Positions 2,268-14,184 of a stretch of 64,000 nt of DNA are shown here, piece by piece. A model generated the notes under the pieces. It searched no databases, was not told the DNA's origin, and worked only from the letters and a program-made list of their open reading frames with translations. The stretch covers positions 1,116,001-1,180,000 of the forward strand of contig NZ_AP019810.1 in assembly GCF_013394305.1 (NCBI RefSeq). Reading direction: 5' to 3'. Source of the stretch: Enterococcus mundtii (GTDB taxonomy: Bacteria > Bacillota > Bacilli > Lactobacillales > Enterococcaceae). Each line of letters opens with the position of its first letter. The stretch's first letter is position 1. A program made the translations under genes and the position numbers.

Positions 2268-3284
2268 ATGAAAAATTTAAATGTTGTATGTTATGGTGTT
2301 CGCCCTGCTGAAAGATCTCTCTTTCAGCAGTTGAATGTCCACGGATTCAACTTGAAACTAGTAGAAGATTTATTAAATGAGACAAATTACGCAGAAGCAA
2401 AAGGAATGGATGCCATCATCGTTCGAGGAAATTGTTTAGCAAATCGCATGAATATCGAACGCTTTGCCCAATTCGGGATCAGGTTCCTCCTCACGCGTAC
2501 AGTGGGGACAAATCATATTGATTTAATGGCAGCTCACGATCATGGAATGCAAGTCGCGTATGTACCATTTTATTCACCAAATGCAATCGCTGAATTATCT
2601 GTTACTTTAGCAATGATGCTTTTACGTAGAACAACTCATACAACGAATAAAACAGCTGCTTATAATTTTACGATTGATCGCTTTATGTTCAGTAAAGAAG
2701 TCCGAAACTGTACAGTTGGAATCGTTGGCGTGGGGAACATCGGACTAACAGAAGCAAAACTTTTCAAAGGATTAGGCGCAACGGTGATTGGTAATGATCT
2801 ATATCCAAGTGAAGAAGCAAAAGCATTCATCGAATTTAAGTCGCTTGATGACTTACTGGCAGAAAGTGATATCGTCAGTATCCATATTCCTTACATCCCC
2901 GGTAAAAATGAACGTTTCATTAATAAAGATTTTATCGAAAAAATGAAGGATGATGCGATTTTGATCAACACTGCTAGAGGGGAGTTACAGGATAATCAAG
3001 CAATCCTTGATGCGTTGACAAGCAAAAAACTATCTGGATTTGGTACAGATGTCTTGCCTAATGAAGCGCTGATTTTCAACAAAAATTTTGATGAAGATCC
3101 CTTATTGATCGATGCAACAGCTAAGGCGCTGATCGATATGTATCCGCGAGTGATCATTACTCCACATATTGGTTCGAACACCGACGAAGCAGTATCTAAT
3201 ATGATCGAAACAAGTTTTGACAATCTTTATAAAATGTTCAATCAATTGGACTGTGCCAACACGCTTCCCACTCAGGCTGGGTAG
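2268..3284 (+). CDS. D-2-hydroxyacid dehydrogenase (D-lactate/VanH-like)
   Basis: 338 residues, the normal length for NAD-dependent D-2-hydroxyacid dehydrogenases, which reduce 2-oxoacids to D-2-hydroxyacids in the cytosol. Visible motifs are the nucleotide-binding GIVGVGNIGLTEAKLFKGLGATVIGND, the INTARGE segment with the substrate-binding Arg, TDVLPNE in the catalytic-Glu region and TPHIGSNTDEA with the catalytic His. LLTRTVGTNHIDL in the N-terminal half is typical of D-lactate/D-hydroxyisocaproate and VanH-like enzymes. No vanA/vanX-type ligase genes are nearby, so a resistance role is not supported. It is probably co-transcribed with the AEC carrier (39-bp gap, AAAGGAAAC ribosome site). 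Confidence 0.9.
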   Translation: MKNLNVVCYGVRPAERSLFQQLNVHGFNLKLVEDLLNETNYAEAKGMDAIIVRGNCLANRMNIERFAQFGIRFLLTRTVGTNHIDLMAAHDHGMQVAYVPFYSPNAIAELSVTLAMMLLRRTTHTTNKTAAYNFTIDRFMFSKEVRNCTVGIVGVGNIGLTEAKLFKGLGATVIGNDLYPSEEAKAFIEFKSLDDLLAESDIVSIHIPYIPGKNERFINKDFIEKMKDDAILINTARGELQDNQAILDALTSKKLSGFGTDVLPNEALIFNKNFDEDPLLIDATAKALIDMYPRVIITPHIGSNTDEAVSNMIETSFDNLYKMFNQLDCANTLPTQAG

Positions 3285-3317
3285 TCGCCATCAAAGAATC
3301 AGCGATCCGATATTGCA

Positions 3318-3408
3318 CCGAAGTGTTTAGCCTCATGAAATAAGGCGATAGCTATAAAAATTGCTCTTCCAATTTTTGTAGCTGTTGCCTTATTTTCGAA
3401 GTGGTTTC
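3318..3408. repeat. Palindromic intergenic repeat, copy 1
   Basis: A long inverted repeat pairs 3337-3363 with 3370-3397 around a CTCTTC loop. It shares flanks with a second copy at 50401-50504 (GAAGTGTT-AGCCTC on the left, CGAAG-GGTT on the right). The stem bodies differ between copies but keep pairing, including G-U pairs, so the structure acts as RNA. Both copies lie between convergent genes, which fits a bidirectional terminator or a mobile palindromic repeat. The remainder of 3285-3595 contains no gene. Confidence 0.75.
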
Positions 3409-3505
3409 GTTAATTCTTCCCGTTGATTTGTTTGTATGGTGACAGACAAAAGTGAATCTTACGTTTGTCTTAACTACTTTCCTTTCGATCATCACAAAAA
3501 ATAGT

Positions 3506-3555
3506 AAGACAGAATCCCCAGAAAATCAAAGAATGCTTTCTGGGGGTCCTGCCTT
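3506..3555 (-). terminator. Terminator of the NAD(P)-binding protein gene
   Basis: CCCCAGAAA and TTTCTGGGGG form the core stem with imperfect AAG-CAG/CTG-CTT extensions; on the minus strand a run of six T follows (3495-3500 region). Confidence 0.75.
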
Positions 3556-3595
3556 ATTTCAAAGCTGAAAATTTCTGTCAAACCTCAATTATTTT

Positions 3596-4228
3596 TTACT
3601 CGTGTATTTTTTCCTTTGCTGTTAATGCAATAGAGTCATACATATGAGTAGTTGGCTCGTTGATCAAAGTTGCTAGGTATTTCCCTACAGTTTGTCGGCT
3701 GATTTCACCAATGTAACTTTTTCCGTTTCTATTCTCGATACGAATATCCTCAACAATCTCTTTATCGGTTAACCAATTAGGACGGATGATGGTAAAGTCT
3801 AGATGACTGTTCTCAATCAAATCTGCTGCAATACGCTGGTCCCCTAAATAAGTATCAGGATCGCGATAGTCGCTCAACTCTGCAACTGCTTCTTCGTCAT
3901 TGAAGTCAACTTCACCGTAGATCCCAAGTGTTGCCATCCAATATACGCGTTTGATCTTATTCTGGTTCATCGCCTTGATCACATGTTTAGCTAAAGGCAC
4001 CATATTGTAAGGACCTAAGCAAGAATAAACGATATCAATGCCTTTCATTGCATGAACCAAATCATCTAGATTCATCGCATCACCAATGATACTTCGCTCC
4101 TTATCAAAGACTTTATCCGGATTTCTCAAAAATAAAGTGACATTCACAGTAGGATCATTTTTTAAAAATTCATAGCTATATTTAGCAATTGGTGCTGATG
4201 CACCAAGGATCAATACGTTTTTTTTCAA
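3596..4228 (-). CDS. NAD(P)-binding Rossmann protein (NmrA/SDR-like)
   Basis: 210 residues with an N-terminal dinucleotide-binding motif, VLILGASAPIAKYSYEFL, then FLRNPDKV and a GDAMNLDDLVHAMKGIDIVYSCLG segment typical of atypical SDR/NmrA-like NAD(P)H-binding proteins. No full YxxxK catalytic pair is evident, so either a redox enzyme or a redox sensor is possible. The start is a TTG at 4226-4228, chosen because AGAGGTGG lies just upstream. Its promoter (4294-4324) has a 19-bp spacer with a MerR-type dyad. Such genes are often targets of NmlR/AdhR-like MerR regulators responding to electrophiles; that link is inference. Confidence 0.8.
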   Translation of the reverse strand: MKKNVLILGASAPIAKYSYEFLKNDPTVNVTLFLRNPDKVFDKERSIIGDAMNLDDLVHAMKGIDIVYSCLGPYNMVPLAKHVIKAMNQNKIKRVYWMATLGIYGEVDFNDEEAVAELSDYRDPDTYLGDQRIAADLIENSHLDFTIIRPNWLTDKEIVEDIRIENRNGKSYIGEISRQTVGKYLATLINEPTTHMYDSIALTAKEKIHE

Positions 4229-4293
4229 TCTATTTCCACCTCTAGTTTTGATTTTTTACTTGTACAACGCTCCTCCTTTGATAAGATGAGTAA

Positions 4294-4324
4294 AGTATAA
4301 GGCTTAGAACGACTCTAACCGCAA
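4294..4324 (-). promoter_or_regulatory. MerR-type promoter for the NAD(P)-binding protein
   Basis: On the minus strand TTGCGG (4319-4324), a 19-bp spacer and TATACT (4294-4299). The spacer contains TTAGAACGACTCTAA (plus-strand reading), the best dyad of the three in this region. Confidence 0.65.
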
Positions 4325-4399
4325 GTATTTATTCGCATCTTTTATTACAATCAGTATGATTCTCAAAAAAGCATCTATTCCAGAAAGGGTTTTAGTTAT

Positions 4400-5308
4400 A
4401 TGAAAAATACGCAAAAAATAAAAAAATTATTAACCGCCTCCATCATTGCAGGAACCGTTTATGGTCTTTTAGCGCTACTTACAGGATTGATGATCAATTA
4501 CAATGTCCTCTTGCTTGATGGTGTCTATACGATGGTCGGTGCGCTGATGTCTCTGATTGCATTATATATTGCTAAGTTTATCCAGACACAAGATTTTGAA
4601 CGTTTTCCTTTTGGAAAGGAATCACTGATGCCCTTGGTTGTTTTTATCCAATACAGTGTCATCCTATTGATTTCTTCCTATGGCCTGATTGAGTCTTTTT
4701 TCAGTTTGCTTTATGCAGATACCTACGTTGATTTAGCGATTGGTTTGCCTTTTTCTTTGTTTGGGACACTCTTTTGTTTTGTCTTTTATCTTTATTTGAA
4801 AAAAAATCCGATCAATCATTCCTTTTATAAGGTGGAGCTGGAACAATGGCGCTTCGGTTTTCTGTTCAGTTTAGGAGTCGTGGTCTCGATCATCGTCTCT
4901 GGTGTACTAGCAAAAACGCCATATCTTGCAATCGCCCAATTGATCGACCCTGTGATTTCCATTGGAATCACCATTTTCTATATTTATCTATCAGTGACTG
5001 AAATCAAAAGTGCCACATTAGAACTTACTTATGCACCCCCAAAATATGAATTGCGCGAAAAAATATTGTTAGTAGTTGATAAGCTCTTGCAAAATGTCGC
5101 TATCGAAACCTATGTCTTACGAATCGCAAAAGTCGGGGATCAAGTCATTCTTGAACTAGATATCGTGATTTTACCCGACAGTGAATTAGATAGTATCCGC
5201 GCGCAAGATCATCTAAGAGATAAACTCAACCACAAAGTAACTGAAGGTTTCTCTGACTATTCTTTATGGTTGAATATCAACTTTATCGGTGATCTCAAAT
5301 GGGCATAA
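4400..5308 (+). CDS. Cation diffusion facilitator (CDF) family transporter
   Basis: 302 residues with paired transmembrane helices from the N-terminus and a soluble C-terminal domain from about residue 210, as in CDF (Zn/Mn/Fe efflux) proteins. LLLDGVYTMVGALMSL corresponds to the helix-2 metal-site region (D-G/S-x4 spacing), and QLIDPVISIGITIFYIY to the helix-5 region with the second Asp. KFIQTQDFERFPFGKESLMPL is the conserved loop with FPFGKE. Substrate metal is not assignable. AGAAAGGG precedes the ATG. Its last codons and terminator reappear in diverged form at 8364-8480 (see findings). Confidence 0.85.
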   Translation: MKNTQKIKKLLTASIIAGTVYGLLALLTGLMINYNVLLLDGVYTMVGALMSLIALYIAKFIQTQDFERFPFGKESLMPLVVFIQYSVILLISSYGLIESFFSLLYADTYVDLAIGLPFSLFGTLFCFVFYLYLKKNPINHSFYKVELEQWRFGFLFSLGVVVSIIVSGVLAKTPYLAIAQLIDPVISIGITIFYIYLSVTEIKSATLELTYAPPKYELREKILLVVDKLLQNVAIETYVLRIAKVGDQVILELDIVILPDSELDSIRAQDHLRDKLNHKVTEGFSDYSLWLNINFIGDLKWA

Positions 5309-5400
5309 GAGAGCATATTTATAAAAAAACAGAAACTTCTCCAATAAGAAAACGTTTGGGAAGTTTCTGTTTTTTTTTCAATTGATCTGTATTTGACTAC
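5285..5400. repeat. Left flanking direct repeat of bacteriocin-like cassette
   Basis: This segment covers the last codons of the CDF gene (IGDLKWA-stop), its terminator and the following CAATTGATCTGT. It aligns with 8364-8480 at roughly 80-85 percent by eye, with the same codon frame at the start. Confidence 0.8.
5329..5378 (+). terminator. Terminator after the CDF gene
   Basis: ACAGAAACTTC pairs with GAAGTTTCTGT and is followed by nine T. This hairpin is part of the left copy of the 5285-5400/8364-8480 direct repeat. Confidence 0.9.
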
Positions 5401-5538
5401 ATGCTTTAAGATCCCTATATTCTCCTCACCGAATACAGATAAATTAGTTTATGATTCTCATTGTTTTAAAATCACGTTACTTAGTCATATTTAATCACAA
5501 AAAAATTATCCTGTATGCTAGATTTATTTCAGCTAACC

Positions 5539-6405
5539 TTATTTAGAAGAATTCCCTACTAAATGTCGGCTGATCTCTTTTTTCAATTCGGTAACAATAG
5601 CTTCTTCACTCGCCATAGATAAAAATTCTAGCCACTTAGTCACTTCTTCCGACTTTTGTTCACAGATAGATTTTCTAACCATAATAACCCCAAGGTAATC
5701 ATATCTTTTCGCATTTTCAGCAAAACTATGTGCATAATCTAGTATATTTTTGCATTCAGTATACATAGCGTTCTCTAAAAATATTGTTGAAAAATTAGTT
5801 AATATTGACAAACGTAGAATTGATATTTCATTTAATTTATTATACTTCTCTAAACTTCGTAACATTTTTGGAACAATGCTTTTGATTGTTTCTAAAGGTA
5901 AAAAGTAAAAAATAAAATTGATGGTCCTGATATCATCGTATGTCCAAGTATCAATCAAAGAAATCCTATCCCATACAATAGTTGCCAATTTCATACTTAT
6001 GTCTGAAAAATTTAATTTATTTAGTTCATTTAGTTCTATAAAAATATGTAAAATATGATTTATCTCGTTAATTTTATAATCATTATTATTTTTTAAATAT
6101 CTTTCACATCGTTTAATTAACATATCTATCTTACTTCGTTGCGCATTAGATACCAAGGAATAAAAATCAACTAATATTTCTTGTCTTTCACTATTATTAT
6201 ATTCATTACAAATATATTCAAATTCATTAAACGATACATTGACTTGTTCTAATAGATACTGCATTGTATCGAATGACGGTACTCTATTCTTGCTCTCAAA
6301 CTTAGAGAGGGTTGAACGTTCTAGATTTCCATTGCATATATTATTTTGTGAGATACCTTTAGATTTTCTTATCATTCTATATACACTTCCATAATTCCAA
6401 ATCAT
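5539..6405 (-). CDS. Rgg/GadR/MutR-like transcriptional regulator
   Basis: An N-terminal XRE-type helix-turn-helix (YRMIRKSKGISQNNICNGNLERSTLSKFESKNRVPS) is followed by about 220 mostly helical residues, the layout of Rgg-family peptide-responsive regulators. The open frame extends to a GTG at 6456, but a TATAAT lies at 6463-6468 on this strand, only a few bases upstream of that GTG; the ATG at 6405 (MIWNYGSVYRMI) is therefore the likelier start, giving 288 residues. Very AT-rich compared with its flanks, which suggests transfer. It is divergent from the bacteriocin-like operon and is the obvious candidate to control it; a cognate peptide gene was not identified. Confidence 0.8.
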   Translation of the reverse strand: MIWNYGSVYRMIRKSKGISQNNICNGNLERSTLSKFESKNRVPSFDTMQYLLEQVNVSFNEFEYICNEYNNSERQEILVDFYSLVSNAQRSKIDMLIKRCERYLKNNNDYKINEINHILHIFIELNELNKLNFSDISMKLATIVWDRISLIDTWTYDDIRTINFIFYFLPLETIKSIVPKMLRSLEKYNKLNEISILRLSILTNFSTIFLENAMYTECKNILDYAHSFAENAKRYDYLGVIMVRKSICEQKSEEVTKWLEFLSMASEEAIVTELKKEISRHLVGNSSK

Positions 6406-6660
6406 GATTTTCTTCTCACTTTCTCTGAATTTTCTAACTATGTGACTTTGAGCCACATGATAAATTATACCATTTTTTTAATATATTATGTATTTGTAGA
6501 AAAAAAGGGAAAGGAGAATTGTTGGGAGTGATCGATATAGGTTGATTATGTTGAATTAATAAAAGTGAAATTTTTAGATTATGTGATTTAGATTATTATG
6601 AAAAGTAGAATACAACCTTTTCAGAAGAAAAAGAAGTCCAAAGAATGGTGGATAAAACTC

Positions 6661-7522
6661 ATGATAAAGAAAAAAATTAAAACAAAATTATTAACAGGAA
6701 TGGTATCGCTCATAATTATAGGAACATTCTTTTTACCAGCTGCAGTAGAAATTACTAATGCTTCAGATATCACTATTTCGACAAATCAGAGTACCAATAG
6801 CACTGAGACTACAATTTAACGATTACTTTGCCAAAAATCCAATCAATATCCCTGGCATGAATTCAAATGAGGCAACTAAAATTGTTAAAAGCATGGTAAC
6901 CTTGTCCGATACAGCAAAAGGTGTAAGTGATAATGAAAAATCTAGTATTACTAATGCGTTTAAAGCTAATCTAGGGAATACATTTTCATTACACGCAAAC
7001 AATTTTATGCTGGATTTCACTAACGTGACTGTCTTGCAAGTTTCTGGCGAAACTGGAACAGAAGATTACTATACAATCACTGTACCAATAGTTGACAGTA
7101 ATCTCAATTTCTTTAGTAATGTCACTGCTGTATACGACATGAATAAAAATTTAAAAGGTTATCAAGAAACTCTTATTTCCAAATCAGTAAAAGATACCTT
7201 TGAAATCAATTTGTATTCTAATGGGACTCAAACAAATCATCAAATTCTTGAAGAAAAATTTGTTAGTAATGAAGACTTACAGCAAGAACTTCAAGATGTT
7301 CAAAAAGAAGCAAGGCAATTACAGCAAACAAGAGGTTTAGTAGAGAAAGTTGCTTGTCTAATGATTGTTTTAAATATTAGTCGCACAATCGCAAATATTC
7401 TTGCTCCAGTCTGTGCAGCTGCTTGCTTATCAGTAGTTCCAGTATGTGTTGCTTGTGTAACAGGTTTTGTTGCTTTAGGTGGTGCATCAATTACAGGTGT
7501 TATCGGCTGTTTTAAATTATAA
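6661..7522 (+). pseudogene. Bacteriocin-like Cys-rich secreted precursor, frameshifted
   Basis: Two overlapping frames make one protein of about 286 residues if one base is skipped near 6805-6820. The first frame starts at ATG 6661 (GGTGG upstream) and encodes a signal peptide, MIKKKIKTKLLTGMVSLIII then GTFFLPAAVEITNAS. The second runs to 7522 and ends in a hydrophobic tail of about 60 residues with six Cys (VACLM, APVCAAAC, VPVCVAC, VIGCFKL). Total length, central polar domain and Cys-rich C-terminal hydrophobic peptide resemble halocin C8-type preproproteins, where the tail is the bacteriocin. That family assignment is inference. An upstream ATG at 6598 lacks a ribosome site. Whether the shift is real, programmed or an error is open. 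Confidence 0.65.
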
Positions 7523-7551
7523 AAAAATTTATTTTGATCGAGGACTTACAA

Positions 7552-7983
7552 ATGAAAGGCATTGTAAACAAGAAATTTACTATCTATTCAATTATGAGCA
7601 TCCTTTTAATACTAATTGGGTTCTTCTTTTATTCAAAGCCATTAGAACCTAAAAATACATTAACTCTAATCAGTAATTCTCAATTGCAGGCAATGGTAGA
7701 CAAGAAGGAGGATGCTATTATCTATTTTGGTAGGCCCACTTGTCCTCAGTGTCAAGAATTTGAACCTTTATTAAGAGAAATACTAGCAAAAAATAAAACC
7801 TCTATTTATTATTACAATACTGATGAAGCTCGAAAAGACAACTCAGACACACTAAGTAATTTTTCAGCTAACTTAGACGTGGATACAGTGCCAACAGTCA
7901 TTAAACTTTCAAAAGGAAAGACCATAGATAAAATAGTAGGTCTAAAGACTACAGATGCTATATATGAATTTATTATAAAATAA
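7552..7983 (+). CDS. Membrane-anchored thioredoxin-like protein (bacteriocin accessory type)
   Basis: The start is placed at ATG 7552 because GAGGA sits nine bases upstream; an in-frame TTG at 7534 would overlap that site. The 143-residue product has one N-terminal membrane helix (FTIYSIMSILLILIGFFFY) and a thioredoxin fold with the redox motif RPTCPQCQEF and the cis-Pro segment DTVPTVIKL. The domain would face outside the membrane. Similar proteins sit beside bacteriocin genes and are thought to form or isomerise disulfides; the six-Cys precursor 30 bp upstream is the natural client. Same operon as its neighbours. Confidence 0.8.
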   Translation: MKGIVNKKFTIYSIMSILLILIGFFFYSKPLEPKNTLTLISNSQLQAMVDKKEDAIIYFGRPTCPQCQEFEPLLREILAKNKTSIYYYNTDEARKDNSDTLSNFSANLDVDTVPTVIKLSKGKTIDKIVGLKTTDAIYEFIIK

Positions 7984-7995
7984 GTAGGTGGACAT

Positions 7996-8271
7996 TTGGT
8001 ACACGATAAAAACTGGACTAAAAATGAAATGTTTTTAGCGCTATTAAAACTATCAATTATTATAAATATTGTCGGAAATTTAGTTACTAATCTGAAAGAT
8101 AGTGGCGGATTACTTTATCTCAATCTATTATTCGGTGTCTGCTTTCTTCATATTCTTAGATATTACAATCTGAAAGTTATAGAAAAGTATTTTTATATAA
8201 CTTTGGAAATATTATTATCACTAATAGCAATATTTTACTTTATATCATCTACAGTCAATTCTCTCAAATAA
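7996..8271 (+). CDS. Small membrane protein, candidate immunity protein
   Basis: 91 residues starting at a TTG (7996) behind TAGGTGG, 12 bp after the thioredoxin-like gene. Three hydrophobic stretches are visible (FLALLKLSIIINIVGNLV, LLYLNLLFGVCFLHIL, ITLEILLSLIAIFYFI). I recognise no family. Position as the last gene of a bacteriocin-like operon and its size fit an immunity protein, but that is inference only. Confidence 0.65.
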   Translation: MVHDKNWTKNEMFLALLKLSIIINIVGNLVTNLKDSGGLLYLNLLFGVCFLHILRYYNLKVIEKYFYITLEILLSLIAIFYFISSTVNSLK

Positions 8272-8303
8272 GGAATATGTACTGAAATATTAAAAATACA
8301 GCT

Positions 8304-8352
8304 TCGCTAATGGACCATGAGTGATTTTCTCGTGTTCCATTAGCGATCTTTT
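8304..8352 (+). terminator. Terminator of the bacteriocin-like operon
   Basis: CGCTAATGGA (8304-8313) pairs perfectly with TCCATTAGCG (8336-8345); ATCTTTTCTT follows. Confidence 0.8.
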
Positions 8353-8363
8353 CTTATGCAGAC

Positions 8364-8480
8364 ATCGGCGATCTCAATTGGGCTTAAGAAAGAGCGTACT
8401 TTATAAAAAAATAGAATCTCCTCCAATACGAAAACGATTGGGAAGCTTCTGTTTTTTTCAATTGTTCTGTGTTTAATTAT
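8364..8480. repeat. Right flanking direct repeat, relic of a CDF gene end
   Basis: Starts with codons for IGDLNWA-stop, matching IGDLKWA-stop of the CDF gene, then repeats its terminator and downstream sequence with scattered substitutions. Its hairpin (about 8407-8455) can also terminate the minus-strand lyase gene, since T runs lie on both sides. Confidence 0.8.
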
Positions 8481-8497
8481 GACTTAGAAAGGTAGAG

Positions 8498-11400
8498 CTA
8501 TTTGACAACGATCTCTTTGCTTTCGAATTGACCGAAATCAATGGTAAACGTATTGGTTTGACTATCATAGACAATCCCTTCACTCGTAGACACCACGTCA
8601 GTAAAATCACTTGGTAAAGTAAGTGTTACTGGTTCAGTTTGTTGCGTTGGATTGGCAATTGTATAAACTGTTTGTTCTGCCTTCGTTTGTTTTAGTAAAG
8701 AAATTGGTTTATTCGTTTTGATCCCTGCCATTTCTCCGCCTTGTTCTTGCCAAAAATTGATGCCTAAGTAACCAGAGGTTTTCACTTCGACTGCTTGGAT
8801 TTCTTTGGTATTTTGCAAAATAGCAACTGGCTGTTTTGCTGCATAATCTGCTAATTCCGATTGAGTTTTGCCGGGCAACATCACATAAGCATATTCTGCA
8901 TCTTTTGGTTGCTGTCCATGATTGATTGAGAAGGTGCGGTAGTCACCTGTATAGGGTGTATCACTAGGAAATGCTTCATTGATTTCTCGATAAGTACCTG
9001 TACGTGTCTCACTGATCACATCGACTGTTTCCTTTTGTGGGAAATAATAACCGATCGACGCATGTTGATGATCTGATTCTAACAATAACCAAGATGTCTC
9101 CTTCGTTTGTTGTGACTGATCAATCATTCCTGTATCCGAAAGTACTTGATACGTATACGAATCATTTAATAAACGATTATCGACAATTGTTTCGATTGAA
9201 GCAGTTGTATCTCCTGTAATACCGGCACCTAAGGCAATGATTTGCCCATCCAATGTAAACCATGACTTCTTCCCTTGTACATTCATCGGTAAGGTCGTTC
9301 CATTATTCTTTGTTCCTTCTTTGTTAAGAGCCATTCCTACTACACCTTGATCTCCAGCAACGGCACCGCCTACCCATGTTTCATTTGAAGTCACTGTAGT
9401 AAATGCTGAAATTTCATCTGCTAAAGGTACTGTATCGATGGTCGTACCAGGTAAACGATAAGGATCGATTGTTGGCCAATAACTCGGACCGAATTGGACT
9501 TGGTCATCATTGTAAAGATAGATCATCCCGTCAGACGTATGCCAGCCTCGTTGATTTTCCAGATTTCCTGCTTCAAATGAAGAGATTCGCTTCGAATACA
9601 TGCTTAATCCTAAATGGTAACTCTCTGTTCGTTGGACAAACCGATCCATTGCATGGTACATCTTTGTTCCGATGAACGGTAGTTGCTTACCCATCACCGT
9701 GGTATTAGCCAATAGCTCCGTTGTCATCATCAAATCATTGTAATCTCTCGTATTTGTCAAATAATAGTTAGGATTAGACAACATCCAATATTTCACTGCT
9801 TCTTGTAAAGCTTTTTGCTGTGTTTCAGGTGCAAATTTCGCCACGATCATTAAATTGTACATCGTTGTCGATCCGTAACCCATTTTTGTCGCTGCTGGTA
9901 CTCGAGAAATGGAACGACCATTGACTAAAGGCAACATTTCACCTTGATACACTAATGGGATAAATGCCGATTGTACGTTATCAACAAAGGACTTTATTTG
10001 ATCAGCTGTCAACGTATAGCGAGATTCTTTGACGATCGATAAAATTTGGCCTACGCCTTTGACTAGTACATTGCCATAAGAGCCTGTATAAGGGATCGTT
10101 TCATGCTGGATAAATGAACCATCTTGATAAAATCCATCTCCATGGGTCACCAATTTAAAGGCATCTGTGATACTTTCAACTGCTTGTGTAACTTTCGCTG
10201 GATCATTTTGTAAGAGACCTAGTCCTAAAACAGTTTGCGCTAAATCTGTGCGATTCGCACCAGTTGTTGAAAAATTTGGTATAAAATCAAGCGCGACAAA
10301 AGTTCCTTGTGGTTTTGTGTAGAGTTGTTTAAATGGATCGGGTACATATCTACTCAACACAGCCGTATACTTTTGAAGTTTCTCCTCTGGTACGTCTTCA
10401 TCCAGCACCATCAAAATTGCCACAAATTTTTGAGCTACTCCGATTTGCCAATCCCACCAATTGCCATGATACTTTGTTCCATCATAGCCTTTTTTTGTGA
10501 TCATAAAATCTAATCCACTTTGAATCGCTTGACTGATGACTTCATCTTGATAAAAACTTGTCCCATTCGTTCCATATGCTAACGCTAGTTTTTGCAACTT
10601 TGTAAATTGCGTGGTTAAATCTGCCGAAGCGGTATTCCCAGATTCTAATGGCCACAGATACGTGCGATCAGGATCTTGATTCATTGTCTCGTAAAGTTTT
10701 TCTGCTTCGTCAGAAAGAGCGTTTACATAATTGGCAATCGCTGGATTAGCTAAATCGGTCGTTGTTGACACAAGTTGATCTTTCCAGTTTGCTTTCATTG
10801 TTTGAAATTCTTCTGTCGGTTCTTCCACTTGCAGACTATTGACCGCTCCACTACGCATGGAATAAATAGTTAATTTACTCTCATTCCCAAATAACCGAAT
10901 CCCTGAATAACCTGACCAGTCCCCATTGATCGTTGTCCCATCAGAATAAAGAACTTCTTGATTTTCATACAACAAACGGTCGTTCAAATATGCTTGGAAC
11001 GATGTTCCTTCATATCTTAGTAACAATTTATAGGTTTGTCCTGAAATCAGTGTAGGACCTTTGATGGCTGTCAACCATTTCCCCCCAGGCTGCCCCAATT
11101 GCCATTCACCATCGCGCATATAGGCAAACGATTGCCAGTTCGATGTCGTCTGATCGTTTCCTCGAAAAACTAGTCCAAAATTGGTCTGTCCCTCATATAG
11201 AAACGTGTATTCTAGATCACCTGAGCTACGGACACCTGCATCTAATAATAACGACACAGACTCAAATTGTTGATTGACTTTCTGGTTTGCGATCTGTAAC
11301 CCATTCTCGTTGGTATATTTATCTGCTTTTCCAACAATGTCTTGCCAAGTACCCAAATGCTGCGAAAAATCTGACTCATAGTTCCCTGATGTCGTATTTT

Positions 11401-11515
11401 TTTGCATGTCAGTCTGTGTTCCTTCTGCACCGACTTGTTGACTGTACCCTAACCCAATACCAACGAATAAACTACACCCTAATGTCACCACTAATTTTGT
11501 TGACCAACGCTTCAT
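8498..11515 (-). CDS. Secreted polysaccharide lyase family 8 (hyaluronate lyase type)
   Basis: 1005 residues from ATG 11515 (AAGGAG upstream); the open frame continues upstream without a better site. A signal peptide (MKRWSTKLVVTLGCSLFVGI, cleavage near residue 30) precedes a jelly-roll-like domain (about 45-225), then the PL8 alpha/alpha toroid and beta domains. The catalytic triad is visible as Asn421 (GANRTD), His471 (FIQHE) and Tyr480 (GSYG); its spacing of 50 and 59 residues equals that of pneumococcal hyaluronate lyase Asn349/His399/Tyr408. The enzyme would cut hyaluronan and/or chondroitin outside the cell to unsaturated disaccharides. No LPXTG motif, so it should be released. It is the last gene of the GAG PTS block, separated from it by a terminator-like hairpin. 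Confidence 0.92.
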   Translation of the reverse strand: MKRWSTKLVVTLGCSLFVGIGLGYSQQVGAEGTQTDMQKNTTSGNYESDFSQHLGTWQDIVGKADKYTNENGLQIANQKVNQQFESVSLLLDAGVRSSGDLEYTFLYEGQTNFGLVFRGNDQTTSNWQSFAYMRDGEWQLGQPGGKWLTAIKGPTLISGQTYKLLLRYEGTSFQAYLNDRLLYENQEVLYSDGTTINGDWSGYSGIRLFGNESKLTIYSMRSGAVNSLQVEEPTEEFQTMKANWKDQLVSTTTDLANPAIANYVNALSDEAEKLYETMNQDPDRTYLWPLESGNTASADLTTQFTKLQKLALAYGTNGTSFYQDEVISQAIQSGLDFMITKKGYDGTKYHGNWWDWQIGVAQKFVAILMVLDEDVPEEKLQKYTAVLSRYVPDPFKQLYTKPQGTFVALDFIPNFSTTGANRTDLAQTVLGLGLLQNDPAKVTQAVESITDAFKLVTHGDGFYQDGSFIQHETIPYTGSYGNVLVKGVGQILSIVKESRYTLTADQIKSFVDNVQSAFIPLVYQGEMLPLVNGRSISRVPAATKMGYGSTTMYNLMIVAKFAPETQQKALQEAVKYWMLSNPNYYLTNTRDYNDLMMTTELLANTTVMGKQLPFIGTKMYHAMDRFVQRTESYHLGLSMYSKRISSFEAGNLENQRGWHTSDGMIYLYNDDQVQFGPSYWPTIDPYRLPGTTIDTVPLADEISAFTTVTSNETWVGGAVAGDQGVVGMALNKEGTKNNGTTLPMNVQGKKSWFTLDGQIIALGAGITGDTTASIETIVDNRLLNDSYTYQVLSDTGMIDQSQQTKETSWLLLESDHQHASIGYYFPQKETVDVISETRTGTYREINEAFPSDTPYTGDYRTFSINHGQQPKDAEYAYVMLPGKTQSELADYAAKQPVAILQNTKEIQAVEVKTSGYLGINFWQEQGGEMAGIKTNKPISLLKQTKAEQTVYTIANPTQQTEPVTLTLPSDFTDVVSTSEGIVYDSQTNTFTIDFGQFESKEIVVK

Positions 11516-11549
11516 TTTGTTCTCCTTTTTGATTATAGATATTTTTTGA

Positions 11550-11604
11550 ACTAAAAAAATCTGCAAGAAAGGCGCATTCTTATTTCGAACGATTCTTTCT
11601 TGCA
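11550..11604 (-). terminator. Terminator/attenuator between PTS EIID and the lyase
   Basis: ATCTGCAAGAAAG and CTTTCTTGCAGAT form a 13-bp stem with a run of seven T on the minus strand. The lyase lies 35 bp beyond, with only a weak promoter candidate, so partial read-through may set lyase expression. Confidence 0.85.
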
Positions 11605-11652: not shown

Positions 11653-12459
11653 TTAAGCTAAGATCCCGGCAGCACTTAATGCAATCGAAAGAATCAAAAT
11701 GATCCAGATCACGCGAGTTGAATTCAATTTCTTCTGACCTAACATCCAGTAAGTCAATAAGACTAATAAAACCGGTACTAATGAAGGTAAGATCGCATCT
11801 AATGTATCTTGAACAACTAACTCCACCCCATTTTGTTTGTAAACGAAAGGAACCGTTGCTTTGATAACTGACGGAATCAAGGCACCAATAACTGTGATCC
11901 CTAAAACAGTTGCTGCGTTGGTGAATTCTGTTAGTTTATTTTTCAGAGTCGTAACTAATTTAACTCCTTGCTTATAGCCAAGTGGTAATAATGCTGCTCG
12001 TCCAAAAAGTAAAGCGATATTGGCAATGATCCAGATCACACAGCCAACGACTGATCCGCTTTGTGCCAATGTACCTGCGATTGAACCAAAAATCGTTCCC
12101 CAGATGACATGGAATAATGAATCGCCTACCCCTGCCAATGAACCCATCAACGCTGTTTTCAACGCGACAATCGTATCTTTTGCTTTGTAACCATCTTCTT
12201 CTTCAATTGCCACATCGATCCCCATGATCAAGTTCCCAAAAATTGCATTCGTATTGAAAAATTGATTATGAGTATTCATCATATCTTGTAATTGTGATTT
12301 GTCTTCCCCATAGAATTTTTTCAGTACAGGTAAAATACCATAGAGATAACCGGTACTCATCATACGCTCATAGTTCCAATTCAATTGGCTACCAAGGATA
12401 TAGCGCCAACTGATGACATTCAATTCTTTTTTCGTTAACTTTTGATTACTCATCGCCAT
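11653..12459 (-). CDS. PTS mannose/GalNAc-family EIID
   Basis: Start set at ATG 12459 (MAMSNQKLTKKELNVIS) behind AAGGAGG, overlapping the 3' end of the EIIC gene by 14 bp, which implies translational coupling. About 268 residues with the EIID hallmarks SWRYILGSQLNWNYERMMSTGYLYGILPVLKKFYG at the N-terminus and ALMGSLAGVGDSLFHVIWGT, then C-terminal membrane helices. With EIIC it forms the permease. Context (PL8 lyase, GH88) indicates import of unsaturated GAG disaccharides, as for streptococcal GAG PTS. Confidence 0.9.
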   Translation of the reverse strand: MAMSNQKLTKKELNVISWRYILGSQLNWNYERMMSTGYLYGILPVLKKFYGEDKSQLQDMMNTHNQFFNTNAIFGNLIMGIDVAIEEEDGYKAKDTIVALKTALMGSLAGVGDSLFHVIWGTIFGSIAGTLAQSGSVVGCVIWIIANIALLFGRAALLPLGYKQGVKLVTTLKNKLTEFTNAATVLGITVIGALIPSVIKATVPFVYKQNGVELVVQDTLDAILPSLVPVLLVLLTYWMLGQKKLNSTRVIWIILILSIALSAAGILA

Positions 12460-13243
12460 CAAAACCTCCTTCAAGTGTTCCAGTGGTTGTCACTGTTTGA
12501 GCAGTTGCTTCTTTTTCGTTATCTCGTTTGAATACTAACAATGCAGCAATAACACCAACGATTGAAATACCAAGCATTGGTACTTGTAGATATGCTGATA
12601 AGAAGAAACCTAAAAGTAAGTAAGGAATATACTGTTTTGCTGGTAAATAATGTAAAAGGATGGCCACACCGACAACTGGTAGTACGCCACCTGCTGTACG
12701 CAATCCATTCATCAACCATTCAGGTGTATTTTCTGTGATTGTTGAAACTGCCGCATCACCGACTAGTAACATCAATAAGATCGGGATTGCTCGAGAAAGC
12801 CCCCATAGGAATGAACCAGATAATACTAACCGTGGGATACTGTTGATACGCATATCTTCAATCGCACGATCGACACGGTGAAGCAAAAAGACATTACAGA
12901 AGCGAGCAACGACATCAAGCTGTAGCATCAGTAATGATACTGGTACAGCTAGACCGATCCCATATTCCGCCCCTTTACCAGAAATAACAGCAAACGCCGT
13001 TCCTAATACAGCGCCAGTAAAGAAGTCGGGTACAGATGCACCTCCAAAAGCCGCAATCCCTAAACGCATCAATTGAAGGGTTCCCCCTACCATCAAGCCA
13101 GTTTCTAAATCTCCCATGATCATCCCGGAGATCATTCCCGCAATGGCTGGTTGTGTCAACGTATTTGAAATAAGTGAATCATTGATTGCAATAAAAGCAT
13201 AAACTGTAATAAGAATAATTTGATACATGGCTAAATGTTGCAT
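12446..13243 (-). CDS. PTS mannose/GalNAc-family EIIC
   Basis: 265 residues, multiple membrane helices, ribosome site AGGAGG eight bases upstream. ISNTLTQPAIAGMISGMIMGDLETGLMVGGTLQLMRLGIAAFGGASVPD is the standard EIIC N-terminal signature of the mannose/sorbose family. It lies between EIIAB (18 bp upstream) and EIID (overlapping). The hydrophilic C-terminal tail ends GGFDGDE. Confidence 0.92.
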   Translation of the reverse strand: MQHLAMYQIILITVYAFIAINDSLISNTLTQPAIAGMISGMIMGDLETGLMVGGTLQLMRLGIAAFGGASVPDFFTGAVLGTAFAVISGKGAEYGIGLAVPVSLLMLQLDVVARFCNVFLLHRVDRAIEDMRINSIPRLVLSGSFLWGLSRAIPILLMLLVGDAAVSTITENTPEWLMNGLRTAGGVLPVVGVAILLHYLPAKQYIPYLLLGFFLSAYLQVPMLGISIVGVIAALLVFKRDNEKEATAQTVTTTGTLEGGFDGDE

Positions 13244-13260
13244 GATTATTTCCTCCTAAA

Positions 13261-14184
13261 TCACTTTCTTAGTTTTTCCATAAAATCGATGACTGGATCA
13301 TTTGGTACCAGTTGAGCGGTCACTTTTATGTCTTTGGCTGCGATTGCTTCAAACACTGCTTCTTCTTCTTTCATGACCTTGATGCTTTTCGTGATTTCTC
13401 TCGCACCTTCTTTATGACTCATGTTTCCTACATTAATTGCAGCCAGCTCACCGCCCGCTTCTAAATACCGCAAGACATCTGTTGGATTTTTAAAAAGTAA
13501 AAAAATACGTTGCTTGCCATATTTGCCAGATTGAACATTTTTTGCCGCCGCAGCAACAGTTAAAACGGATAGCCGCATAGATGTAGGCGCTGCCATTCTT
13601 AATGAAGATTTTTGTAAAGAATCCATTGCTGCCTCATCATTGATCACGATGATCCGTTGTGTATTCAAACTTGTGGACCAAATTCCTGCAACTTGACCAT
13701 GAATCAAGCGTTCATCAATCCTTACATTGACAATATTCGCTTTGCCTTTAAATTCCTTATATTGTGCTAGATCTCCCTCTGCGGCTTGCGTTTCTTCCGC
13801 TTCCGTTGCGATCATCTTGTTTTTGACATCTACGATACCCCCGCGTGCCAAATCGATCAACGCCTCGATCGTTGCTTGTGGATTAAGGGTCGCTTCCATG
13901 ACTAAAGGTAAAGACATCCCAGCAATAATTGTAACTTCTTCATCTTCTAGGTAATTTTTTAGCGCTGTGTTACATGGTGTCCCACCTAGCAGATCTGCAA
14001 TAATCAAGGTCGAACCGTTAAGGGCTTTCATTTTCTCAGTTAATTCATGTTCAAATTGTAAATTATCGCCATCTGGTCTTAAAGAAAGTGTGTGGACATG
14101 TTCTTGCACGCCAACGATCATCTCTAAACTGGCTTTGACTCCATCGGCCATGCTACCATGACTGACCAATAAGATATTTCTCAT
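13261..14184 (-). CDS. PTS mannose-family EIIA-EIIB fusion
   Basis: 307 residues joining two cytosolic domains. Residues 1-125 are EIIA-Man with phosphorylated His9 (LLVSHGSMADG) and IADLLGGTPCN; residues about 150-307 are EIIB-Man/Sor with His162 (VRIDERLIHGQVAG). A short Ala/Glu-rich linker joins them. In streptococcal GAG systems these domains are often separate genes, so the fusion is a useful marker. It is the first gene of the minus-strand operon EIIAB-EIIC-EIID. A TAACATGTTA operator lies at 14219-14228. Confidence 0.92.
   Translation of the reverse strand: MRNILLVSHGSMADGVKASLEMIVGVQEHVHTLSLRPDGDNLQFEHELTEKMKALNGSTLIIADLLGGTPCNTALKNYLEDEEVTIIAGMSLPLVMEATLNPQATIEALIDLARGGIVDVKNKMIATEAEETQAAEGDLAQYKEFKGKANIVNVRIDERLIHGQVAGIWSTSLNTQRIIVINDEAAMDSLQKSSLRMAAPTSMRLSVLTVAAAAKNVQSGKYGKQRIFLLFKNPTDVLRYLEAGGELAAINVGNMSHKEGAREITKSIKVMKEEEAVFEAIAAKDIKVTAQLVPNDPVIDFMEKLRK

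What the first reader, a model, noticed from the sequence alone, without database searches (positions are those of the whole stretch)
6661..8271. Candidate disulfide-rich, halocin C8-like bacteriocin system in a Firmicute
The reconstructed precursor (about 286 residues) has a signal peptide, a polar middle domain and a hydrophobic 60-residue C-terminus with six Cys, similar in size and order to halocin C8 preproproteins. The next gene encodes a membrane-tethered thioredoxin fold, a logical disulfide catalyst, and the third a small immunity-sized membrane protein. A divergent Rgg-like regulator suggests peptide-controlled expression.
Basis: partly seen in the sequence, partly recalled or inferred. 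Interest (0 to 1): 0.8.

Follow-up and report, generated by a model that had tools for sequence, protein, structure and literature searches.

The report
Candidate disulfide-rich bacteriocin cassette, precursor broken
An Enterococcus genome carries a small inserted set of genes that probably makes, folds and protects against a cysteine-rich antibacterial peptide; the peptide gene is broken in this copy but whole in a close relative, and the two protein-family libraries searched have no model for it.

Summary
The precursor family (signal peptide, polar middle, C-terminal ~60 aa with C-x18-C-x3-C-x6..11-C-x2-C-x17/18-C) occurs in 10 of 16 genus genomes and, one non-member set aside, 16 of 396 sampled order genomes. 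A membrane-tethered thioredoxin-like gene lies beside it at 16 of 20 loci; a short membrane ORF follows at 15 of 19. Close relatives show an empty site, an intact cassette, this break, and a deletion leaving regulator and small membrane gene. Best reading: a Sec-exported precursor releases a disulfide-bonded bacteriocin, the thioredoxin-like protein oxidises it, the small membrane protein gives immunity. Activity is untested. It is not a halocin C8 member: neither TIGR04449 nor TIGR04450 (Gram-positive immunity/bacteriocin fusion) hits it. Profile comparison with shuffled controls links it remotely to TIGR04450 proteins through one intermediate. The window's regulator is Rgg-like but below cut-off. 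A new variant of a known kind.

The parts
5318..5376 (+). left copy of a direct repeat (just after the cation-efflux gene) flanking the cassette; similarity extends over about 113 bp
   Evidence: 59 nt, 90% identical to 8400-8458; single copy at the empty site in G012
5400..8363 (.). inserted cassette (approximate limits)
   Evidence: absent in G012, whose DNA aligns to window 2898-5399 and 8364-9887; GC 29.5% against 38.0% for the whole window; 1 of 245 sampled windows of that size was as low (its position was not printed)
5539..6456 (-). divergent HTH regulator, Rgg-like, 305 aa
   Evidence: TIGR01716 24.6 bits (cut-off 36.9), PF21259 24.4 (27): below both cut-offs; related divergent regulators at 11 of 20 loci
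6661..6819 (+). first piece of the broken precursor: signal peptide (by eye) and start of the linker (within ORF 6598-6819)
   Evidence: family profile 1e-6; intact counterpart L004 5815-6675
6827..7522 (+). second piece of the broken precursor: rest of linker, middle domain and Cys tail (within ORF 6758-7522)
   Evidence: family profile E 8.4e-109, profile positions 52-275; 97% identical to L004
7337..7519 (+). predicted mature peptide: C-terminal 61 aa with six Cys, after a conserved Arg(-Gly); the cut is inferred
   Evidence: Arg at the junction in 14 of 16, Cys spacing in 15 of 16; 0 nonsynonymous and 3 synonymous differences from the intact sister over 62 codons
7552..7983 (+). thioredoxin-like protein with N-terminal membrane anchor (by eye) and CPQC motif; TTG start at 7534 also possible
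   Evidence: PF00085 39.0 bits (cut-off 23.5); best NCBIfam hit TIGR01295 PedC/BrcD 56.8 bits (cut-off 120)
7996..8271 (+). 91-aa protein with three predicted transmembrane segments (simple hydropathy), candidate immunity protein
   Evidence: no Pfam or NCBIfam family; 98% identical copy kept in G007 without precursor
8400..8458 (+). right copy of the flanking direct repeat

Best explanation
The cassette encodes a Sec-exported, disulfide-rich bacteriocin. Proposed steps: (1) the precursor leaves by its signal peptide; (2) outside the membrane the tethered thioredoxin-like protein oxidises the Cys tail; (3) a protease cuts at the conserved Arg(-Gly) before the tail and releases a ~61-aa hydrophobic, probably helical peptide held by about three disulfides; (4) the peptide kills related cells, probably at the membrane; (5) the small membrane protein made from the last gene, perhaps helped by the polar propeptide, protects the producer; (6) a divergent Rgg-like regulator controls expression. 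Shown: gene content, conserved Cys spacing and Arg, synteny, insertion and decay. Inferred: export, oxidation, cleavage, killing, immunity, regulation. In the window genome the precursor reads as broken, so this copy probably makes no peptide; an apparently intact paralogue lies elsewhere in the same genome.
For: Intact homologues keep signal peptide, middle domain and Cys tail. Thioredoxin-like gene adjacent or near at 16 of 20 loci; its best NCBIfam hit is a bacteriocin-maturation disulfide isomerase (PedC/BrcD; window and four relatives 36-57 bits, below the cut-off of 120). A short membrane ORF follows on the same strand at 15 of 19 loci scanned, in several sequence types. One close relative (G007) lost the precursor and most of the thioredoxin-like gene but kept the small membrane gene, 98% identical, and has no precursor elsewhere. 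The tail is the most conserved region: 0.43 mean pairwise identity against 0.18-0.32 elsewhere. Discrete AT-rich insertion with an empty site in G012; other copies sit next to guaA and integrase-family ORFs or beside a TcpC conjugation gene. Precedent seen in abstract and passages: in E. faecalis EntV, DsbA oxidation and GelE cleavage are needed for activity, in a model with Sec export (PMC6606811).
Against: No antibacterial activity, cleavage or disulfide was measured. Four of 20 loci have no thioredoxin-like gene nearby: L005 Arthrobacter, L006 Pseudalkalibacillus, L055, and L054, a fragment 0.5 kb from a contig start. Thioredoxin-like relatives at 28-31% also occur in genus genomes without a precursor (G003, G013). 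Relatives of the window's own small membrane protein are in 6 of 16 genus genomes, fewer than the 10 with precursor. Three of 19 loci have no convincing small membrane ORF downstream (L048, L050, L051) and L006 is doubtful; no null was run for how often short one-segment ORFs occur by chance in AT-rich DNA. The deletion in G007 may be too recent for the kept gene to have decayed (1 nonsynonymous, 2 synonymous differences). Predicted structures are weak (pLDDT 43 whole, 71 tail) with no PDB match for the tail.
Confidence: 0.75

Rival explanations
1. Halocin C8-type self-immunity: the polar middle domain of the precursor, freed by cleavage, is the immunity protein, and the small membrane gene is accessory.
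For: Same layout and size as ProC8 (283 aa, exported, giving an immune peptide HalI and a 76-aa toxin; PMC11509114 passages). NCBI names the remote Gram-positive kin 'putative immunity/bacteriocin fusion bifunctional protein'. The middle domain is conserved (0.32 mean pairwise identity), and loci L048 and L051 lack a clear small membrane ORF.
Against: G007 kept the small membrane gene and lost the middle domain, though the deletion may be recent. A small membrane ORF follows at 15 of 19 loci. Conservation of the middle domain could instead serve folding of the tail.
Confidence: 0.3
2. The product is not a bacteriocin but a secreted signal, adhesin or envelope protein with a membrane-inserting disulfide-bonded tail, folded by its partner thioredoxin-like protein.
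For: No activity is known; no Pfam or NCBIfam model names it; an Rgg-like regulator could belong to a signalling circuit.
Against: Patchy presence, insertion as a cassette, linkage to mobile genes and several broken copies (window, L047, L049, L050, the fragment L054, and L006 by ORF layout) fit an antagonism gene better than a housekeeping one; the nearest oxidoreductase model and the nearest precursor model (weakly, through L057) are both bacteriocin ones.
Confidence: 0.15
3. The window copy's break is only a sequencing or assembly error and the cassette is functional here (compatible with the best explanation).
For: The other three genes are open; the mature part has 0 nonsynonymous and 3 synonymous differences from the intact sister, the larger precursor part w 0.28.
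Against: Other family members are broken too (L047, L049, L050), so decay is not rare; so few differences say little either way.
Confidence: 0.35

Closest known systems
TIGR04450 Gpos_C8_like, 'putative immunity/bacteriocin fusion bifunctional protein' (Staphylococcus and Bacillaceae plasmids)
   Same: signal peptide (by eye, in two of the three members read), polar middle part, short Cys-rich hydrophobic C-terminus; a 68-aa ORF with two predicted segments follows in Rossellomorea
   Different: seven window-family members gave no hit to the model at E<=10; different Cys spacing; no thioredoxin-like gene annotated beside the three members read
Halocin C8 (ProC8/HalC8, TIGR04449)
   Same: overall layout and size of the precursor
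   Different: no match to the model; Tat export and a 76-aa mature peptide are reported for halocin C8 (passage), here a Sec-type signal judged by eye and ~61 aa; halocin's ten Cys is recalled, not checked; no halocin sequence was compared directly
EntV of Enterococcus faecalis
   Same: predicted Sec-exported precursor, disulfide made by a thioredoxin-fold DsbA, C-terminal peptide cut free by a protease (PMC6606811 abstract and passages)
   Different: EntV's disulfide is between two Cys and dsbA is not near entV; sequences were not compared here
PedC/BrcD bacteriocin disulfide isomerases (TIGR01295)
   Same: best NCBIfam hit of the thioredoxin-like gene
   Different: 56.8 bits against a cut-off of 120; PedC-type clusters use an ABC exporter (recalled), none is in this cassette

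Membership tests
Halocin C8 domain (TIGR04449) | match to the family model | tested here: not met
   0 of 21 close genomes at E<=0.001, own included; 0 of 398 phylum genomes over cut-off, one sub-threshold fragment in G246; no hit for 14 precursor proteins at E<=10; control Haloferax volcanii positive
TIGR04450 Gram-positive C8-like immunity/bacteriocin fusion | match to the model over 27 bits | tested here: not met
   no hit for 7 family members at E<=10 nor for 6 more distant ones; L057 11.5 bits; own genome no match at E<=0.1
TIGR04450 Gram-positive C8-like immunity/bacteriocin fusion | remote common origin (profile-profile) | tested here: inconclusive
   16-member family vs 3 TIGR04450 sequences: score 34.5, probability 42.8%, best of 60 shuffles 29.8; family vs L057 61.5 vs 26.7; TIGR04450 set vs L057 43.4 vs 25.3
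Disulfide-bonded Sec-exported bacteriocins (kind) | signal peptide, about six Cys in a short C-terminal peptide, oxidoreductase gene beside it | tested here: met
   six Cys in 14 of 16 and seven in two, Arg junction in 14 of 16; oxidoreductase gene at 16 of 20 loci; signal peptides judged by eye from the alignment, no signal predictor was run
Disulfide-bonded Sec-exported bacteriocins (kind) | growth inhibition, released peptide, immunity | not testable with these tools
   needs bench work
PedC/BrcD disulfide isomerase (TIGR01295) | score over 120 bits | tested here: not met
   56.8 bits; four relatives 36-54
Rgg/GadR/MutR regulators (TIGR01716) | score over 36.9 bits | tested here: not met
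   window 24.6; of 5 relatives' regulators, 3 pass (45.5, 67.3, 116.9), one scores 36.3, one has no hit at E<=0.01

The most novel reading that the evidence does not exclude
An undescribed family of bifunctional precursors in lactic acid bacteria: one exported chain carries a six-Cys bacteriocin and a propeptide that neutralises it, folded by a dedicated extracytoplasmic thioredoxin-like enzyme, with a second, separately evolving membrane immunity gene; together with Staphylococcus plasmid proteins and perhaps halocin C8 it would form one wide superfamily of immunity/toxin fusions.
Probability: 0.3. Interest if true: 0.65.

Novelty: new variant of a known kind. Interest (0 to 1): 0.55.

Why it matters
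[quoted passage not shown] A precursor that travels with its own candidate disulfide catalyst and without an ABC exporter in the cassette would be a simple, testable secretion-and-folding unit. Pfam and NCBIfam have no model for it, yet members occur in several families of the order, with remote ones on Pseudalkalibacillus and Arthrobacter plasmids. Four close genomes hold four states of the locus (empty, intact, broken, immunity-like gene only), a natural series for testing how such weapons are gained and lost.

Tried and rejected
Halocin C8 membership: rejected on TIGR04449. Fetching a halocin record for direct comparison: three recalled accession numbers are not in the collections; dropped. 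Phage origin: no match in the phage collection and no relative in viral contigs. Plasmid carriage in enterococci: only one Arthrobacter and one Pseudalkalibacillus plasmid matched. Solved relatives: best E 0.025 to a ribosomal protein and 0.27 to another chain, taken as chance. Structure: whole precursor model too poor to use (pLDDT 43.4, two near-identical rows); tail alone, single sequence, pLDDT 71.4, four helices, no Foldseek match. A weak order-level hit, G805/L056, is a lipoprotein and was left out of counts; G277/L057 is a distant member, left out of the 20-locus count but used as intermediate. A membrane protein beside the L057 precursor looked VKOR-like by eye, but its 142-aa part had no Pfam hit. 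Promoter-like sites were at chance level, 15 found against 18.6 expected, and one terminator-like site against 0.7; no Rfam match in 4000-9000.

Papers: searches listed no description of this family (listings only; one search was too broad to tell). Passages were read in PMC6606811 (with abstract), PMC11509114, PMC8628083 and PMC9504619; the last describes a Carnobacterium glycocin cluster with two thiol-disulfide isomerases and an ABC transporter, a different system by its text. PMC11509114 gives HalI as 243 aa, which with 76 aa exceeds the 283-aa precursor it states, so that figure was not used.

Full report
What is there. The window region of about 5400-8363 is a discrete, AT-rich insertion (29.5% GC against 38.0% for the window; 1 of 245 sampled windows of that size was as low) holding four genes: a divergent regulator (5539-6456, -), a precursor (6661-7522, +), a thioredoxin-like gene (7552-7983, +) and a small membrane protein (7996-8271, +). 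The precursor does not read as one ORF here; it lies in two frames. A natural copy in E. mundtii NZ_PUAP01000021.1 is intact, 286 aa, with the same gene order. The window belongs to a 3.3-Mb genome in 4 contigs, by this similarity an E. mundtii relative.

Family. The same genome holds a second, apparently intact copy of the precursor (281 aa, 41% identical) with thioredoxin-like gene, short membrane ORF and divergent regulator, near guaA and an integrase-family ORF. Relatives occur, own genome counted, in 10 of 16 genus genomes, 12 of 106 family genomes, 17 of 396 order genomes of which one, G805, is a lipoprotein and not a member, and 3 of 398 phylum genomes: own, the fragment in G112, and the very distant G277. 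Plasmids of Arthrobacter agilis and Pseudalkalibacillus carry remote members. Among 16 aligned members the tail is 59-65 aa and hydrophobic (GRAVY 1.37-1.91) after a polar middle (-0.18 to -0.76), with six Cys in 14 and seven in 2; the spacing C-x18-C-x3-C-x6..11-C-x2-C-x17/18-C holds in 15 of 16 (the own-genome paralogue differs); an Arg precedes the tail in 14 of 16. The tail is the most conserved region (mean pairwise identity 0.43; middle 0.32; junction 0.28; signal 0.25; linker 0.18). No Pfam or NCBIfam model covers the proteins scanned.

Neighbours. Of 22 loci examined, two (L056, L057) were set aside as non-member and distant member. Of the other 20, 16 have the thioredoxin-like gene next to the precursor or, in L051, 0.8 kb away; in L052 and L053 it is upstream. 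Missing: L005, L006, L055, and L054 (a fragment near a contig start). A related divergent regulator stands at 11 of 20; L042 has a GHKL kinase instead. A short membrane ORF (35 aa or more, at least one predicted segment, same strand, within about 200 bp; judged from the list) follows at 15 of 19 loci scanned (L054 was not scanned): proteins alike in window, L004, L041, L042 and more weakly L043 (E 6.5e-4); a 54-aa type in L044, L045, L047; others elsewhere, two of them only 38 aa. Differing small membrane genes at one position are what immunity genes look like, but no chance rate was computed, and relatives of the window's own protein are in only 6 of 16 genus genomes.

Natural series. In close relatives the same site is empty with a single copy of the flanking repeat (G012; DNA aligns to window 2898-5399 and 8364-9887; G012 has no precursor, thioredoxin-like or small membrane gene match), holds the intact cassette (G008, the contig of L004 by length and sequence), holds the broken precursor (window), or lacks window positions about 6604-7912, that is the precursor and most of the thioredoxin-like gene, while regulator and small membrane gene remain open (G007). 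G007 has no precursor elsewhere (best E 0.017 to the start of the profile in a 472-aa frame). The flanking repeat is 59 nt at 90% within about 113 bp. Broken copies also occur in L047, L049, L050, the fragment L054 and, by ORF layout, L006. The kept gene in G007 differs from the window's by 1 nonsynonymous and 2 synonymous changes: too few to prove selection.

Mechanism. Best supported: export by signal peptide, oxidation by the tethered thioredoxin-like protein (CPQC; Pfam Thioredoxin 39.0 bits; best NCBIfam hit PedC/BrcD 56.8 bits, under its cut-off of 120), cleavage at the conserved Arg, release of a ~61-aa disulfide-bonded peptide, immunity by the small membrane protein. Gene content, conservation and gain/loss are shown; every biochemical step is inferred. 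EntV of E. faecalis is a tested precedent for DsbA oxidation plus protease release of an exported peptide (PMC6606811; abstract and passages).

Relation to halocin C8. Layout is alike (ProC8 283 aa; PMC11509114 passage) but the halocin model TIGR04449 finds nothing here. The Gram-positive model TIGR04450, named immunity/bacteriocin fusion, also misses the enterococcal proteins; one of its members matched 475 plasmid records, 470 of them Staphylococcus. Profile-profile scores: family to L057 61.5 (60 shuffles, max 26.7), TIGR04450 set to L057 43.4 (max 25.3), family to TIGR04450 set directly 34.5 (max 29.8). I read this as a probable remote kinship, not membership; the direct link is weak and rests on three TIGR04450 sequences.

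Limits. Structure models are poor to moderate and the tail matched nothing in the PDB. Rgg assignment is below cut-off for the window's regulator, above for 3 of 5 relatives. Signal peptides and the thioredoxin anchor were judged by eye. Literature searches covered open-licence papers only.

Noticed in passing
G000:C1:1642077-1642919 (L058 5575-6420): Second, apparently intact cassette in the same genome near guaA and an integrase-family ORF; relatives in G011 (guaA end) and G001 (integrase) have similar neighbours, suggesting a shared insertion site.
   Followed up: partly
L048 3330-5261: This family member lies beside a TcpC conjugation gene and a lysozyme-like NlpC/P60 gene, so it may be cargo of an integrative conjugative element.
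   Followed up: partly
L041 4199-4534 and 4750-5025: Two related small membrane genes on opposite strands at one locus, as if an extra immunity-type gene had accumulated; part of the G015 region reads N.
   Followed up: no
L102 4874-5314: G014 carries a second thioredoxin-like gene of this type on contig C9 with no precursor match on that contig; its precursor match is on C12. Possibly a remnant.
   Followed up: partly
L104 (G003 contig C44): Two thioredoxin-like genes around a peptidase-C39 ABC transporter; looks like a different bacteriocin cluster.
   Followed up: partly
plasmid records: A TIGR04450 'immunity/bacteriocin fusion' protein has relatives on 475 plasmid records, 470 of them Staphylococcus; one paper search for the model's names found nothing.
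   Followed up: no
8498-11566 and 11653-14184: Polysaccharide lyase family 8 gene beside PTS-like genes (the latter judged by eye), right of the cassette.
   Followed up: partly
L057 5106-5591: The distant precursor in G277 is followed by a membrane protein with paired Cys that looks VKOR/DsbB-like by eye but whose 142-aa part has no Pfam hit.
   Followed up: partly
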